Positions 9,176 to 32,204 of a stretch of DNA of 64,000 nucleotides are shown here, in pieces (position 1 is the first letter of the stretch; each line of letters begins with the position of its first letter). The DNA is from Nakamurella flava (lineage in GTDB: Bacteria; Actinomycetota; Actinomycetes; Mycobacteriales; Nakamurellaceae), in contig NZ_SZZH01000006.1 of the NCBI RefSeq assembly GCF_005298075.1, forward strand, positions 372,001 to 436,000, in the 5' to 3' direction. The notes under the pieces are model-generated. The model made no database searches. It saw only the letters and a program-made list of their open reading frames with translations, and was not told where the DNA came from. Made by a program: the position numbers and the translations under genes.

Positions 9176-10411
9176 GTGACCGCACTCGACGAGCGGACCG
9201 AGGTCCTGACCTCTCGTCGGCTCCTCGATCTGGTCGACACCGTGATCGACACCGAGCGGCTCGACCTCACGGCCTCGTCGCTCGCGAACGCCACGACCGA
9301 TCCCGAGCCTCGCCCGGCCCCCCTGGACGTCAGCCGGGCCTGGGAGGCGGTCGACCCCGCATCCGCCCCCGCCACCCTGGCGGCCTACCGCGCGGACTGG
9401 ACCCGGTTCACGCGCTGGTGCGTCGAGCACGGCCGACCGGCGCTGCCGGCGGCACCGGCCGTGGTCGCGGAATACCTGACGGCCGTCGGTCGACCGGCCG
9501 GCTCGCGAGCGTGTGCCCCCAGCACGCTGGTCCGGTGGGTCTCGGCCATCAACAAGGTGCACCTGGCCCACGGGATGACTCCACCCGGTCAATCCGCGCC
9601 GGTCCGCAGCATCCTGGCCGAGGCGCGACAGGCCCGCGACGCGGGCGCCCCCCGCTCGGCGCCACTGGCCCTGGACGACCTGCGAGCGATGCTCGCGGCC
9701 ATCGAGCCCGAGCGCGCGGTCTGGCCCACGGCCGTCGCCGCCCGCCGGGACACCGCCCTGCTGCTGCTCGGCTTCGCGGGCGCACTCCGCCGGTCGGAGC
9801 TCATCGAGCTGACCCTGGCCGACGTCACGATCGAGCCCGCGGTGGGGCTGCGCATCCGCGGCGGCGGGGCCGGTCATCGGCGCGATCGTCCCGTTCGGAT
9901 GCTGCCGTTCGGACAGGACCCGGTAACCTGCGCGCCCTGTGCGTGGACGGCGTGGCGCCAGATCCTCGACGCCTGGGACGGCGCCGACCCCGCCGGTGGC
10001 CGCCGGGCCGTCCTGGTCGAGTTGCATCGGCGCCCTGGCGGGGAACGGCCGGGGCACGTCTGCCGGGACGCCGTCCTGGAGCCGGTCGGCCGCGACGCGC
10101 CCCGGGCGCAGCGGTCCCTGTTTCCCGGCGTCCACCGGTCCGGTGCGATCGCCGGTACCGCGATGACCGGCGAGGCCGTCCGCAAGATGGTGCGCCGCCG
10201 AGCCCAGGGCGCCGGGGTGACCGAACCACCGGGCGCCAGCCTGGGCGCACACTCCCTGCGTTCCGGGTTCATCACCGAAGCGCTCCGGCGCGGGGCCGAT
10301 CCGCGGGCCGTCATGGCGCAGACCGGTCACCGCGATCTCGCCGCCGTACAGGCCTACGCCCACCGCGTCGCCCCGCCGCCGGCCGACGCCGTCGCCCTGC
10401 TCGACCTGTGA
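9176..10411 (+). CDS. Tyrosine recombinase with CxxC/HxC motif
   Basis: 411 residues. The core-binding domain spans about residues 60-155 and the catalytic domain about 165-410. The tyrosine-recombinase residues are all present: Arg205 (GALRRSEL), His359-x-x-Arg362 (HSLRSGF), His385 (TGHRD) and Tyr394 (AYAHRV). Between boxes I and II lie Cys252-x-x-Cys255 and His294-x-Cys296, a likely metal site that also occurs in the two degenerate relatives in this window. The GTG start follows a G9 tract. The gene overlaps the next by 4 bp (GTGA), so the two are translated together. No excisionase, att duplication or phage gene is nearby, so this is not an obvious prophage integrase. Confidence 0.85.
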   Translation: MTALDERTEVLTSRRLLDLVDTVIDTERLDLTASSLANATTDPEPRPAPLDVSRAWEAVDPASAPATLAAYRADWTRFTRWCVEHGRPALPAAPAVVAEYLTAVGRPAGSRACAPSTLVRWVSAINKVHLAHGMTPPGQSAPVRSILAEARQARDAGAPRSAPLALDDLRAMLAAIEPERAVWPTAVAARRDTALLLLGFAGALRRSELIELTLADVTIEPAVGLRIRGGGAGHRRDRPVRMLPFGQDPVTCAPCAWTAWRQILDAWDGADPAGGRRAVLVELHRRPGGERPGHVCRDAVLEPVGRDAPRAQRSLFPGVHRSGAIAGTAMTGEAVRKMVRRRAQGAGVTEPPGASLGAHSLRSGFITEALRRGADPRAVMAQTGHRDLAAVQAYAHRVAPPPADAVALLDL

Positions 10412-11490
10412 ACGCCGGCCCACCACGGGCGCGACTGCGTCCGTTGCCGGAACCGCCGCCGCAGCGGGCGCGGACGCCGCGGCCCGTCGGTACCGTGCCG
10501 CCGCGCTACGCCCAGAGCTGGGCGCTGTTCGCCGACTGGTGCGCCGCCGCCGGTCGGTCCGCGTTGCCGGCCGACCCGGCCACCGTGCTGACGTTCCTGC
10601 AGGCGTGCCCGGCGGCGGTGCCGACCCAGCGTCGCCGGGTGGTGGCGATCGACCACCACCACGTCGCCGCCGGGCAGGCCCCACCGGGCGACGACGACGA
10701 CGTCCGCGCGGCGGTGGGCCGCCCGCCCGGTGAGCCGCCCTGGGTCGCGCCGGATCGGGCCGGCGTCGACGCTGCGCTGCGGACCCTGCCATCACACGGG
10801 TTCACCCGCGGCCTGTTCGGCCGGCGGGACCGGGCCCTGCTCGTGCTGGCCGCGGTCGCCGGTCTGCCGTACCGGACGATCGCCGGATCGACCGCTGCCG
10901 ACCTGCATCACGAACCCGGAACGGGCACGGTCGCGGTGGCCATCGGCCGACGTCGACGCGTGATCGTGCCGGTCGAGAACGCCCTGCTCTGCCCGGCGTG
11001 CGCGCTGACCCGGTGGGCGGAGACGCACGCCGTCCTGACCCGGCAGATCGCCACCCGCGCCCTGGCCGCCCATCTCCGCGCCGTCGCGCCGGTCACCGAC
11101 ACCGACGACCACCACTGCCGGCGGCCGGTGTCCTTCGCGGTCGGCCCGGTCCCGCTGTTCCCGCCGATCGACCAGTGGGGGCACGTCGCCTTCCCGCAGA
11201 CCCCCCTGAGCCCCCACGCCGTCTCCCGGCAGACCCGCACCCTGCTCGCCGGTGACGTCAGCGAGCACCGGGACGTCCCGGTCGTCACGGTGGAAGAGCA
11301 GTCGGTCCCCCCGACGGCGCCCGAGCCGGCTGCCCCGACCTACGGCCGGGCCGAGCGGGACGAGGCGTGGAACCGCCGCCGGGCCGACCTGCACCGGTTG
11401 TCCGGGGTGGCCGACGAGCTGGACGAGGTCGAACGCCGGGCCGCCGAGCTGAACCGCCGGGTCGAGGAGTTGCTCGGGCAGCTGCTCTGA
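10408..11490 (+). CDS. Catalytically degenerate tyrosine-recombinase paralogue
   Basis: 360 residues from a GTG overlapping the recombinase stop. Residues ~33-94 match the recombinase core-binding domain (W..F..WC...GR.ALPA, ending in PPG). Residues ~137-280 match its catalytic fold (FGRRDRALLVLAAVAGL, CPACALTRW). The box-I arginine is Pro154, and the HxxR, His and Tyr boxes are absent. Instead the protein ends in an Arg/Glu/Leu heptad segment (about 329-360) predicted to be a coiled coil. Cys195/Cys198 and His235/Cys237 keep the putative metal site; PPIDQW is at 252-257. It probably binds DNA or the active partner without cutting. I know of no named family. Confidence 0.7.
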   Translation: MNAGPPRARLRPLPEPPPQRARTPRPVGTVPPRYAQSWALFADWCAAAGRSALPADPATVLTFLQACPAAVPTQRRRVVAIDHHHVAAGQAPPGDDDDVRAAVGRPPGEPPWVAPDRAGVDAALRTLPSHGFTRGLFGRRDRALLVLAAVAGLPYRTIAGSTAADLHHEPGTGTVAVAIGRRRRVIVPVENALLCPACALTRWAETHAVLTRQIATRALAAHLRAVAPVTDTDDHHCRRPVSFAVGPVPLFPPIDQWGHVAFPQTPLSPHAVSRQTRTLLAGDVSEHRDVPVVTVEEQSVPPTAPEPAAPTYGRAERDEAWNRRRADLHRLSGVADELDEVERRAAELNRRVEELLGQLL

Positions 11491-27394: not shown

Positions 27395-28264
27395 GTGTCG
27401 ATGACCGAAATGACGACGGCGGTGAGCCGGGCACCGGGGGGTGCCTGTGCTCCGGCCCAGCGGCGGCGGGTACGACGGGCCCGCGACGGCGGCCCGGTCG
27501 ACCTGCCGGTGACCGGACGGGCACCGGCGCCGACGAGGGAGCCCGAGACCCGGGCGCCGTCCGCGCCCCGGATCCTCGTCGTCGACCAGGATCCGCAGAC
27601 CGGCGTGACGATCGCGGCCATGCTCGGCGCGCGCGGCGGCACGGTGCTGCGGACCGTCGGGCGGAGCCGGGACGCGCTGCGGTGGGCCGCCGAGCTCCGC
27701 CCGGACCTGGTGATGGTCGACGCCGGACTGCGGGACGCCGCCGGGAGCGTCGGGCCGACGACGGACGGCCTGGGCGCCGCCGCCGAGCTGCACCGTCGGC
27801 AGGCCGCCCCGGTGGTCCTGATGATCGGTGAGCGCGCCCCGTCCCGGGAGCGGATCGCCACCTCGGGGGCGCTCGGGTGCGTCGTCAAGCCGTTGCGTCC
27901 GGCTGCGGTGCTTCCCGCGGTCGAAGTGGCGCTGGCGCGGTCGGCCACCCTGGAGGCGCTGCGCGACCAGGTGCAGGACATCACCGTCCGGCTGCGGGAC
28001 CGCGAGCTGGTCGAACGGGCGAAGGGCCTGCTGATGACCCATCGGGGGATGAGCGAACCGCAGGCCTTCCGGTGGCTGCAGCGCACCGCCATGGACCGGC
28101 GCACCCCGATGGCCGCCGTGGCCGCCGCGACCCTGGACCGGTTCGCGGCGGACCAGGTCGCCGCACCGTCACCCACCCCGGCCGCCTTCGCGGTGGTCCC
28201 GCCGACGGACCGGCGTACCCGCCCGGCCCTGCTCGACCAGCCCACCCCCACGCGGAGTTCCTGA
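27395..28264 (+). CDS. Receiver and ANTAR domain response regulator
   Basis: 289 residues. After a ~55-residue Arg/Pro-rich extension comes a receiver domain (about 58-180) with acidic residues Asp64/Asp66, phospho-acceptor Asp109 in LVMVDAGL and a VVKPLRP lysine motif. An ANTAR domain follows (about 190-250: LVERAKGLLMTHRGMSEPQAFRWLQRTAM). It should be a phosphorylation-gated RNA-binding antiterminator. No cognate histidine kinase is adjacent. GGGGGAG lies 7 bp before the GTG start. Confidence 0.85.
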   Translation: MSMTEMTTAVSRAPGGACAPAQRRRVRRARDGGPVDLPVTGRAPAPTREPETRAPSAPRILVVDQDPQTGVTIAAMLGARGGTVLRTVGRSRDALRWAAELRPDLVMVDAGLRDAAGSVGPTTDGLGAAAELHRRQAAPVVLMIGERAPSRERIATSGALGCVVKPLRPAAVLPAVEVALARSATLEALRDQVQDITVRLRDRELVERAKGLLMTHRGMSEPQAFRWLQRTAMDRRTPMAAVAAATLDRFAADQVAAPSPTPAAFAVVPPTDRRTRPALLDQPTPTRSS

Positions 28265-28341: not shown

Positions 28342-28953
28342 ATGACCACGACGGACGGGACCCACCCTACGACCCGCCGCATCCGCCCCCTGATGCGTCG
28401 GGTGTCGGCCGACCACGTGCAACTGGCCCGGCCCCCCGCACCGCTGCCCGTCCAGGGCTCGTCGTCCGGTTGGATCGTCCGCCGCGACCAGGCGCTGGTC
28501 GCGCTCACCGCGGTGGGGCTGACCGCGCCGGCGGTCTCCGCGCTGACCGTGGGCTGTGTCCGGTTGGGGACGGGCGAGGTGCTGGTCCACGTGCCGGGCG
28601 AGTCGGTCGACGTCCGCGTCCCCGGGTGCCCGGACGGGCGCGCGGTGTGCGGGGCGTGCGCCGTCCACCGGTGGGTCCGGGCCCTGGAACTGACCGTTCA
28701 GCACACCGATCCGTGGGTCATCCCGGCGATCCTGGCGCGCGCCCCGGCGCTCACCGCGTCGGCTGAGCACGACTGCCTGCCGGGACGGTCGGTGGACCCC
28801 GCCGTCGTGCCCCTGATGTTGCTGCCGCCCATCGACCAGTGGGGGCCGGTGCCGAGCCGGGCGTCGACCCGCTCGCCCGCCGGAGCCGGACGGGCCGTCC
28901 CGTCGGCGATCGACCGGCGCGTCCGGCCAGGTCAGTCTTTCCCCGGCCCCTGA
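28342..28953 (+). CDS. Truncated degenerate recombinase-fold protein (relative of the gene at 10408)
   Basis: 203 residues matching the catalytic-like half of the degenerate recombinase at 10408-11490 and lacking the core-binding domain. Shared features are VRRDQALVALTAVGL (Thr61 where the catalytic Arg should be), Cys103-x-x-Cys106 in CGACAVHRW, His143-x-Cys145, and PPIDQWGPV at 162-170. None of the HxxR, His or Tyr catalytic boxes is present. AAGGAAAGG lies before the ATG. It is 77 bp behind the receiver-ANTAR gene and probably in its transcript. It may be a DNA- or protein-binding adaptor; the fold is inferred through the 360-residue relative. Confidence 0.65.
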   Translation: MTTTDGTHPTTRRIRPLMRRVSADHVQLARPPAPLPVQGSSSGWIVRRDQALVALTAVGLTAPAVSALTVGCVRLGTGEVLVHVPGESVDVRVPGCPDGRAVCGACAVHRWVRALELTVQHTDPWVIPAILARAPALTASAEHDCLPGRSVDPAVVPLMLLPPIDQWGPVPSRASTRSPAGAGRAVPSAIDRRVRPGQSFPGP

Positions 28954-31027: not shown

Positions 31028-32160
31028 TGACCGAGCCGAGCACCCCCACCCGTCCGGCCCGCCCCGCCCGCGGCGCCGGCCCGGTGCTGCTGGACGCCCC
31101 GGCCCTGCGGCACCTGCCGAAGGCCGACGGCCCGCAGAGCGCCAAGGAGTTCAAGTCCGACCAGGAGGTGCGCTGGTGCCCGGGCTGCGGGGACTACGCG
31201 ATCCTGGCCGCGGTGCAGAACTTCCTGCCGCAGCTCGGGGTCAAGCGGGAGAACATCGTCTTCATCTCCGGCATCGGCTGTGCCGCCCGCTTCCCGTACT
31301 ACGTCAACACGTTCGGTATGCACTCGATCCACGGGCGCGCGCCGGCCATCGCCACCGGACTGGCCACCTCCCGGTCCGACCTGTCGGTGTGGGTGGTCTC
31401 CGGCGACGGCGACGCGTTGTCGATCGGTGGCAACCACCTGATCCACGCGCTGCGCCGCAACGTGAACCTCAAGATCCTGCTGTTCAACAACCGGATCTAC
31501 GGGCTGACCAAGGGCCAGTACTCGCCGACGTCCGAGATCGGCAAGCTCACCAAGTCGACGCCGCTCGGCTCGGTGGACACCCCGTTCAACCCGGTGTCGC
31601 TGGCGTTGGGCGCGGAGGCGTCGTTCGTGGCCCGCACCATCGACTCCGACCGCACGCACCTGACGTCGATGCTGCAGGCCGCCGCGTCCCACCCGGGGAC
31701 GTCGCTGGTGGAGATCTACCAGAACTGCAACATCTTCAACGACGGCGCCTTCGACCCGCTCAAGGACTCGACCAGCAAGGACGAGGTCACCATCCGCCTG
31801 GAGCACGGGCAGCCGATCCGGTTCGGCATCGGCGGGCACCGCGGCGTCCGGCGCGATCACGCCGGCCGGCTCGAGGTCGTCGACGTCGACCAGGTCGGGG
31901 TGGACGCCCTGCTGGTGCACGACGCCCACGACCCCGACCCGTCGACCGCGTTCGCGATCTCCCGGCTGTCCGACCCGGAGACCCTGGATCAGACGCCCAT
32001 CGGCATCTTCCGCGACGTCAAGCGCCCGACCTACGAGGCGGCGATGACCGCGCAGATCGACACGGCCATCGCCCGCCGTGGACAGGGCGACCTGTCGGCG
32101 CTGCTGGCCGGGCGGGACACCTGGACCGTCGGGTCGGGTCAGGTCGGGTCAGGTCGGTAA
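31027..32160 (+). CDS. korB: 2-oxoacid:ferredoxin oxidoreductase, beta subunit
   Basis: 377 residues. The [4Fe-4S] ligands Cys51 and Cys54 (WCPGCGDY) and Cys85 (GIGCAARFP) are visible, with the TPP-Mg2+ motif GDGDALSIGGNH and NNRIYGLTKGQ. It carries thiamine pyrophosphate and passes electrons to ferredoxin. Its last residues (VGSGQVGSGR) come from a short DNA repeat and run into the palindrome that ends the operon; the TAA stop is within the stem. The stand-alone ferredoxin at 35437 is one possible electron acceptor in this window. Confidence 0.93.
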   Translation: MTEPSTPTRPARPARGAGPVLLDAPALRHLPKADGPQSAKEFKSDQEVRWCPGCGDYAILAAVQNFLPQLGVKRENIVFISGIGCAARFPYYVNTFGMHSIHGRAPAIATGLATSRSDLSVWVVSGDGDALSIGGNHLIHALRRNVNLKILLFNNRIYGLTKGQYSPTSEIGKLTKSTPLGSVDTPFNPVSLALGAEASFVARTIDSDRTHLTSMLQAAASHPGTSLVEIYQNCNIFNDGAFDPLKDSTSKDEVTIRLEHGQPIRFGIGGHRGVRRDHAGRLEVVDVDQVGVDALLVHDAHDPDPSTAFAISRLSDPETLDQTPIGIFRDVKRPTYEAAMTAQIDTAIARRGQGDLSALLAGRDTWTVGSGQVGSGR

Positions 32161-32204
32161 AGAATGCCGTTACCAGGTACCTGGTAGCGGCATTCTTTAC
32201 CGAC
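32153..32204. terminator. Near-perfect 52-bp palindrome / bidirectional terminator
   Basis: The sequence is self-complementary over 26 bp per side (centre between 32178 and 32179), with one T/G wobble and essentially no loop. It contains AAAGAATGCCG and its complement and includes the korB stop codon. It lies between convergent korB and the class II aldolase gene. Confidence 0.75.

What the first reader, a model, noticed from the sequence alone, without database searches (positions are those of the whole stretch)
9176..11490. Active tyrosine recombinase translationally coupled to a catalytically dead paralogue
The two genes share GTGA. Both proteins have the same core-binding layout (W..F..WC...GR.ALPA, ending PPG) and catalytic-fold start (RRD.ALL.L). 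The first keeps Arg205, His359/Arg362, His385 and Tyr394. The second has Pro154 for the Arg, has lost all later boxes, and ends in a coiled-coil-like tail. A conserved CxxCAxxxW and HxC set occurs in both, suggesting a metal site not typical of tyrosine recombinases. This looks like a two-component recombinase with a regulatory or architectural dead subunit, with no phage or IS context.
Basis: partly seen in the sequence, partly recalled or inferred. Interest (0 to 1): 0.75.

Follow-up and report, generated by a model that had tools for sequence, protein, structure and literature searches.

The report
Cre-like recombinase with dead partner
A DNA-recombining enzyme related to Cre is encoded together with an inactive relative of itself, and this two-gene unit recurs in soil actinobacteria and on many Rhodococcus plasmids, which suggests that the inactive partner has a real job, probably in controlling the DNA exchange.

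Summary
In a Nakamurella genome, A (9176-10411) and B (10408-11490) share GTGA. A is Cre-like and keeps R205, H359, R362, H385, Y394, but has Gly where 55 of 60 aligned A rows have the catalytic Lys. B keeps a Cre-like core-binding domain and half a catalytic domain, has no catalytic set, and ends in a long helix. B is no random decay: it directly follows A at 33 of 52 B loci, forms one side of a branch (100/98), has dN/dS 0.15-0.48 in 18 comparisons, co-varies with A, and occurs on 109 plasmid records at E 1e-20. In relatives a palindromic, loxP-like core lies upstream of A; one plasmid family shows a crossover inside it. Tn7-like ends lie 34-44 bp from it in 17 of 23 loci. Best reading: a cre/loxP-like recombination module with a conserved non-catalytic subunit. 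B's role is inferred. The window copy has no recognisable core and may be impaired. The CxxC/HxC set fits a metal site of A; geometry was not measured.

The parts
9176..10411 (+). A: Cre-like tyrosine recombinase, 411 aa, start GTG
   Evidence: catalytic residues
10408..11490 (+). B: catalytically dead Cre-like partner, 360 aa, start GTG
   Evidence: catalytic positions
10408..10411 (+). GTGA: start codon of B overlaps stop codon of A
9866..9868 (+). codon 231 of A: Gly at the column where 55 of 60 A rows have the catalytic lysine
9929..9940 (+). CxxC (residues 252-255) of A
10055..10063 (+). HxC (residues 294-296) of A
10990..11001 (+). CxxC (residues 195-198) of B
11110..11118 (+). HxC (residues 235-237) of B
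11347..11484 (+). C-terminal helix of B (residues 314-359), in place of the second half of the catalytic domain

Best explanation
A and B are the two proteins of a Cre/loxP-like site-specific recombination module. A is the catalytic subunit. In relatives it would act at a palindromic core site some 40-260 bp upstream of its core-binding domain. B is a non-catalytic subunit of the same fold, made in step with A by overlapping genes. It would bind the same DNA region through its core-binding domain and join the complex through its half catalytic domain and its long C-terminal helix, and so set when or in which direction A recombines. On plasmids the most likely job is resolution of dimers and cointegrates. 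Shown: Cre kinship, pairing, loss of the catalytic set in B, purifying selection on B, co-variation of A and B, core sites in relatives, and one natural crossover inside a core. Inferred: that A made that crossover, that B binds DNA or A, that B controls the reaction, and the plasmid role. The window copy is a chromosome-like member whose A lost the lysine and whose core was not found; it may be impaired.
For: Profile of 54 A proteins finds Cre at E 5e-37; profile of 42 B proteins finds the Cre core-binding domain at E 1e-11; Foldseek ranks Cre chains first for both models. A directly before B at 33 of 52 B loci. B one side of a branch, 100/98, in all 200 bootstrap trees counted. dN/dS of B 0.15-0.48 in 18 comparisons, none with the window copy. 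Mantel r 0.84, 0 of 2000 permutations as high, 32 pairs. Core: RTAANNRAACATTAY has 7 matches in 17 Nakamurella genomes, 5 of them upstream of an A gene; in G015 the full palindrome occurs twice in the genome, once per module, at the left edge of homology of the two copies. Rhodococcus: a conserved stretch with the core in 47 plasmid records at E up to 1, 28 of them over at least 80% of the 136-base query. Crossover: in NZ_CP040720 a flank 88% identical over 1608 bp to an intact region of NZ_CP142145 switches to the module inside the core. B on 109 plasmid records at E 1e-20.
Against: No activity, binding or expression was tested. The window copy has no recognisable core (best palindrome p 0.24; no core match with up to 1 mismatch) and lacks the lysine. 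11 of 52 B loci have no A in the stretch fetched, 5 of them at an edge; G002 has an open B frame without A within 6.5 kb (L054). A relatives without B exist. Cores differ between clades, and 8 of 29 upstream regions reach p 0.05 for a palindrome, some of these at places that are not the shared core (L076, L089, L095). Two of the 7 core matches lie away from A, and the control pattern has 2 matches. The second junction of the crossover was not found.
Confidence: 0.6

Rival explanations
1. B is a transcriptional repressor of the A-B operon: a dead recombinase that binds the palindrome upstream of A as an operator, like MrpR of phage SPbeta, with no part in strand exchange.
For: B lacks the catalytic set, as MrpR does (PMC10516654, passages). 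The palindromes lie 40-260 bp upstream of the A domain, where operators can lie. MrpR is a weak Foldseek hit of B (E 0.23).
Against: Homology edges and a crossover lie in the core, so the site is used for exchange. No expression data.
Confidence: 0.2
2. B is a target-site or partner factor for transposition, like TnsF of Tn6022, and the pair serves Tn7-like elements.
For: Tn7-like operons flank the pair on several plasmids; TnsF is an inactivated tyrosine recombinase (PMC10293859, passages).
Against: Most loci examined have no TnsABC nearby (TnsA hits beside the pair at L076, L084, L107, L108). B has no N-terminal zinc-finger region. Tn7-like elements look like neighbours inserted beside the site.
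Confidence: 0.08
3. A-B is an integrative mobile element whose two ends are bound by A and B.
For: Several copies per genome in different places; sharp homology edges of the two G015 copies.
Against: One core per copy, none at the right end, in G015.
Confidence: 0.07
4. B is a decaying duplicate.
For: Loss of catalytic residues and of the metal motif in most B; some frames are broken (L059).
Against: dN/dS well below 1, co-variation, single origin, conserved adjacency.
Confidence: 0.03

Closest known systems
Cre/loxP of phage P1 (function and site layout recalled)
   Same: Cre is the nearest solved structure of both proteins by profile and by fold; palindromic core upstream of the recombinase gene
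   Different: Cre works alone (recalled). Here a dead Cre-like partner is encoded with the enzyme, A carries CxxC/HxC, and the core centres are 5-7 bp
MrpR/YopR of Bacillus phage SPbeta (PMC10516654, passages seen)
   Same: A tyrosine recombinase fold that lost recombinase function and binds DNA
   Different: MrpR is a stand-alone repressor with K and Y kept; B is encoded with an active-type partner and lacks the second half of the domain
TnsF of Tn6022 and the Tsy element (PMC10293859, passages seen)
   Same: Inactivated tyrosine recombinase in a mobile element; Tsy uses YRec plus TnsF
   Different: TnsF has N-terminal zinc fingers and works with TniQ or YRec+HTH; in Tsy both recombinases must be active
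SE elements of Vibrio (PMC9345347, passages seen)
   Same: Two recombinases per element and imperfect inverted repeat core sites
   Different: Both IntA and IntB keep R-H-R-Y
Tn5053-type res site hunters (PMC7765201, passages seen)
   Same: Transposons found beside a resolution site
   Different: There the site is that of a resolvase at res and the element is TniABQ; here Tn7-like TnsA elements beside a tyrosine recombinase core, targeting not shown

Membership tests
tyrosine recombinase (A) | R-H-R-(H/W)-Y in the catalytic domain | tested here: met
   R205, H359, R362, H385, Y394 in the window copy; Pfam Phage_integrase E 2.2e-13
tyrosine recombinase (A) | catalytic lysine of the beta hairpin | tested here: not met
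   window copy has Gly231; 55 of 60 A rows have Lys
tyrosine recombinase (B as enzyme) | R-H-R-Y set | tested here: not met
   0 of 52 B rows have R205, H359, R362 and Y394 together
Cre/loxP-type module | Cre-like recombinase | tested here: met
Cre/loxP-type module | palindromic core beside the gene | tested here: inconclusive
   found in relatives, not at the window copy
Cre/loxP-type module | recombination at the core | tested here: inconclusive
   one natural crossover; no assay
MrpR-type repressor | recombinase fold without catalytic set | tested here: met
MrpR-type repressor | represses transcription from bound repeats | not testable with these tools
TnsF target selector | N-terminal zinc-finger region | tested here: not met
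   B starts with a disordered stretch and then the core-binding domain
two-ended integrative element | core site at both ends | tested here: not met
   one per copy in G015
known anti-phage defence protein | match to a PADLOC model | tested here: not met
   3 proteins, 0 families at E 0.1

The most novel reading that the evidence does not exclude
An obligately mixed Cre-like recombinase in which only A subunits can cut: with B on part of the core the complex makes a single strand exchange and leaves the junction to replication or to a switch set by B, which gives built-in direction to plasmid resolution; and Tn7-like transposons have learnt to home on this complex.
Probability: 0.15. Interest if true: 0.85.

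Novelty: new variant of a known kind. Interest (0 to 1): 0.62.

Why it matters
Tyrosine recombinases are well studied and widely used as genome tools. A conserved dead partner made in step with a Cre-like enzyme would be a new way to control such an enzyme and could give a Cre system with built-in direction. The window B has no match above a cut-off in Pfam, NCBIfam, PHROGs or PADLOC (two Rhodococcus B have weak sub-threshold matches to tyrosine recombinase models), and on the listed plasmids it is annotated as hypothetical protein or, in some, recombinase. The core site and the fixed position of Tn7-like ends beside it make the module directly testable. My paper searches listed no paper whose title or abstract describes such a pair; the library holds open-licence papers only.

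Tried and rejected
Viral origin: a scan of viral contigs with the B alignment gave 20 pattern matches, none confirmed. Defence: no PADLOC match. Two-ended element: no second site. TnsF kinship of B: rejected; the Tsy-like trio is a separate insert between A and B. A core at the window copy: not found. The second junction of the kinase-gene crossover: not found in the plasmid collection. Strict term sets in paper searches gave nothing or off-topic papers. The two sites of NZ_CP120358 looked at first like a second crossover, but they are identical only over about 100 bases around the site and differ on both sides beyond, so I count them as weak.

Weak counts: rows include fragments and near copies (L081/L106, L084/L108; B of L059 lies in two frames and is two rows). 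For the tree I left out 19 of 112 rows; for the Mantel test I used 32 pairs. Mantel and Fisher values treat related loci as independent. The 135 plasmid records (E 1e-5) may include weak hits to A-type genes; (E 1e-20) gives 109.

Full report
1. What is there. The window is G000, contig C6, 372001-436000. G000 is of the same genus as G008 and G015, whose contigs have the lengths of Nakamurella endophytica and N. silvestris records, so I call it Nakamurella. A matches Pfam Phage_integrase (E 2.2e-13); B of the window matches nothing in Pfam at E 1, nothing in PHROGs or PADLOC and nothing near a cut-off in NCBIfam. B proteins of Rhodococcus have weak matches to tyrosine recombinase models (NCBIfam E 2e-4; Pfam E 0.016).

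2. Kinship. A profile of 54 A proteins finds Cre at E 5e-37, and one of 42 B proteins finds the Cre core-binding domain at E 1e-11. Models: A mean pLDDT 85.0, B 86.8. Foldseek ranks Cre chains first for both (for B the TM-scores are only 0.24-0.39 among the Cre chains listed). B stops after the first half of the catalytic domain and continues in a 46-residue helix.

3. Catalytic residues (alignment). Of 60 A rows, R205 in 59, K231 in 55, H359 in 57, R362 in 59, H385 in 36 (W in 18), Y394 in 54; 53 have R205, H359, R362 and Y394 together. Of 52 B rows, R205 in 5, K231 in 0, H359 in 1, R362 in 3, Y394 in 0; none has the four together. The window A has Gly at 231 and a long end branch (0.83), so I do not call it active.

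4. Is B real? B was found in 10 of 61 related genomes, 7 of 17 in the genus, at 32 loci in named genomes of Nakamurella, Rhodococcus, Nocardia, Aldersonia, Williamsia and Antrihabitans, and in 109 plasmid records at E 1e-20, 105 of them over at least 80% of the query (135 at E 1e-5 with another B as query). In 65 of 397 genomes of the order something matched, but there A proteins are hit too. A of the same plasmid type is wider: 306 plasmid records at E 1e-20, many in far phyla, so A-like enzymes often lack B. Of 52 B loci, A lies directly before B (overlapping or within 49 nt) at 33, L076 and L097 with a broken A frame among them; at 5 an insert of 2 to 4.7 kb lies between; at 3 an incomplete A ends 136-260 nt away; at 11 no A is in the stretch fetched, 5 of these at an edge. 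A 4-nt overlap is possible at 14 of 52; at L080 and L103 a later start is also there. B is one side of a branch (100/98) apart from every A in the tree of 93 rows. A and B distances agree (r 0.84; 0 of 2000; 32 pairs). dN/dS: B 0.15-0.48, A 0.14-0.40 in 18 comparisons.

5. The Cys/His set. CxxC and HxC go together: A 53 both, 3 CxxC only, 4 neither; B 14 both, 38 neither. That is what a shared metal site would give. Geometry was not measured. All 14 B rows are of Nakamurella genomes.

6. The site. The two G015 copies share 2.8 kb at 88%, and the left edge is CGTGCATAA-7-TTATGCACG or a near form of it, found twice in that genome, once per copy, and in none of six other Nakamurella genomes with up to 1 mismatch. 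Its centre RTAANNRAACATTAY is also upstream of A at L051 (the other pair of G000, whose A lies in two frames), L060 (G006) and L061 (G001). In 17 genomes it has 7 matches, 5 of them upstream of A, 140-258 bp before the core-binding domain; the reversed control has 2. Three G008 copies have another palindrome and L058b yet another. The window copy has none. Rhodococcus plasmids have a conserved stretch around GGTGCTGCTAATTGCCATTAGCGCACC; 47 records match at E up to 1, 28 over at least 80% of the query. At L142 and L144 no A-B pair is annotated within 6 kb of the site.

7. Exchange at the core. In NZ_CP040720, NZ_CP050179 and NZ_CP120357 homology to the site starts in the middle of the core (query base 40). 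The flank left of it in NZ_CP040720 is 88% identical over 1608 bp to a region of NZ_CP142145 where a gene, by my reading a protein kinase, runs on unbroken. The switch lies within the core. The other half of that gene was not found in these plasmids. It is a trace of exchange, not an assay. Two sites of NZ_CP120358 are identical over about 100 bases around the site only, which I count as weak.

8. Tn7-like neighbours. CCTACA, which I take for the terminus of a Tn7-like element (it reads TGTAGG upstream of TnsA in NZ_CP045807), ends 34-44 bp left of the site in 17 of 23 loci; not in L104, L142, L144, L162, L167, L170 (some loci are near copies). In 7 plasmid records the matched TnsA region starts 223-235 bp from the site match (NZ_CP040723, NZ_CP063451, NZ_CP063452, NZ_CP142144, NZ_CP038031, NZ_CP095852, NZ_CP083976; positions). 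Of 12 records with TnsA at 60% or more, 11 are listed; these 7 are among them, and the other 4 (NZ_CP045807, NZ_CP126457, NZ_CP086600, NZ_CP088909) show no A-B pair within about 4-5 kb of that TnsA by annotation. Whether this is repeated targeting or partly common descent is open. It recalls res site hunters (PMC7765201, passages).

9. Mechanism. I propose that A recombines the upstream core as Cre does loxP and that B is a non-catalytic subunit that binds the same region and controls the exchange. Shown: kinship, pairing, selection, site in relatives, one natural crossover. Inferred: that A is the enzyme of that crossover, that B binds DNA and A, that plasmid resolution is the purpose.

10. 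Known or new. Dead recombinase folds are known (MrpR, TnsF), as are pairs of active ones (SE elements, Tsy). My searches listed no paper on a Cre-like enzyme with a coupled dead partner; I read titles and starts of abstracts, and passages of five papers. I rate it a new variant of a known kind.

Noticed in passing
window 28342-28953 (+): A B-like frame of 203 aa without the core-binding domain, with CxxC and HxC kept, behind an ANTAR-like regulator gene (27401-28264); a similar place in unnamed Nakamurella genome G009 (L066) has a stop inside.
   Followed up: partly
G000 contig C6, about 328, 352, 381 and 400 kb: Four A/B-related loci within about 73 kb of one contig: a pair with A in two frames, an A fragment, the pair of this finding and the B fragment.
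   Followed up: partly
L105 4165-7935; also L075 and L173: A trio (tyrosine recombinase, small HTH, 702-703-aa protein with Cys pairs and a recombinase-like end, by eye) inserted between A and B; it resembles the Tsy element.
   Followed up: partly
L088 2008-5967, L086 1282-5967, L093 3820-5874: Other inserts between A and B, with different genes, one ligase-like by eye.
   Followed up: partly
L141, L145, L163, L107: Tn7-like operons beside the conserved recombination site on Rhodococcus plasmids.
   Followed up: yes
L065, L067-L069, L124-L138: A relatives for which no B was found in the stretch fetched; 18 of 60 A rows have Trp at the third His position.
   Followed up: partly
L060 5293-6186 and L156 9997-10890 (G006): Copies of one insertion sequence of about 0.9 kb lie 105-115 bp from both core matches of this genome.
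   Followed up: partly
L063 after 9110 and L062 counterpart: A stretch behind B conserved in both G015 copies that, by eye, holds a small frame of about 75 aa.
   Followed up: no
window about 32153-32204: A 52-base near-perfect inverted repeat, perhaps a two-way terminator (L053 10154-10205).
   Followed up: no
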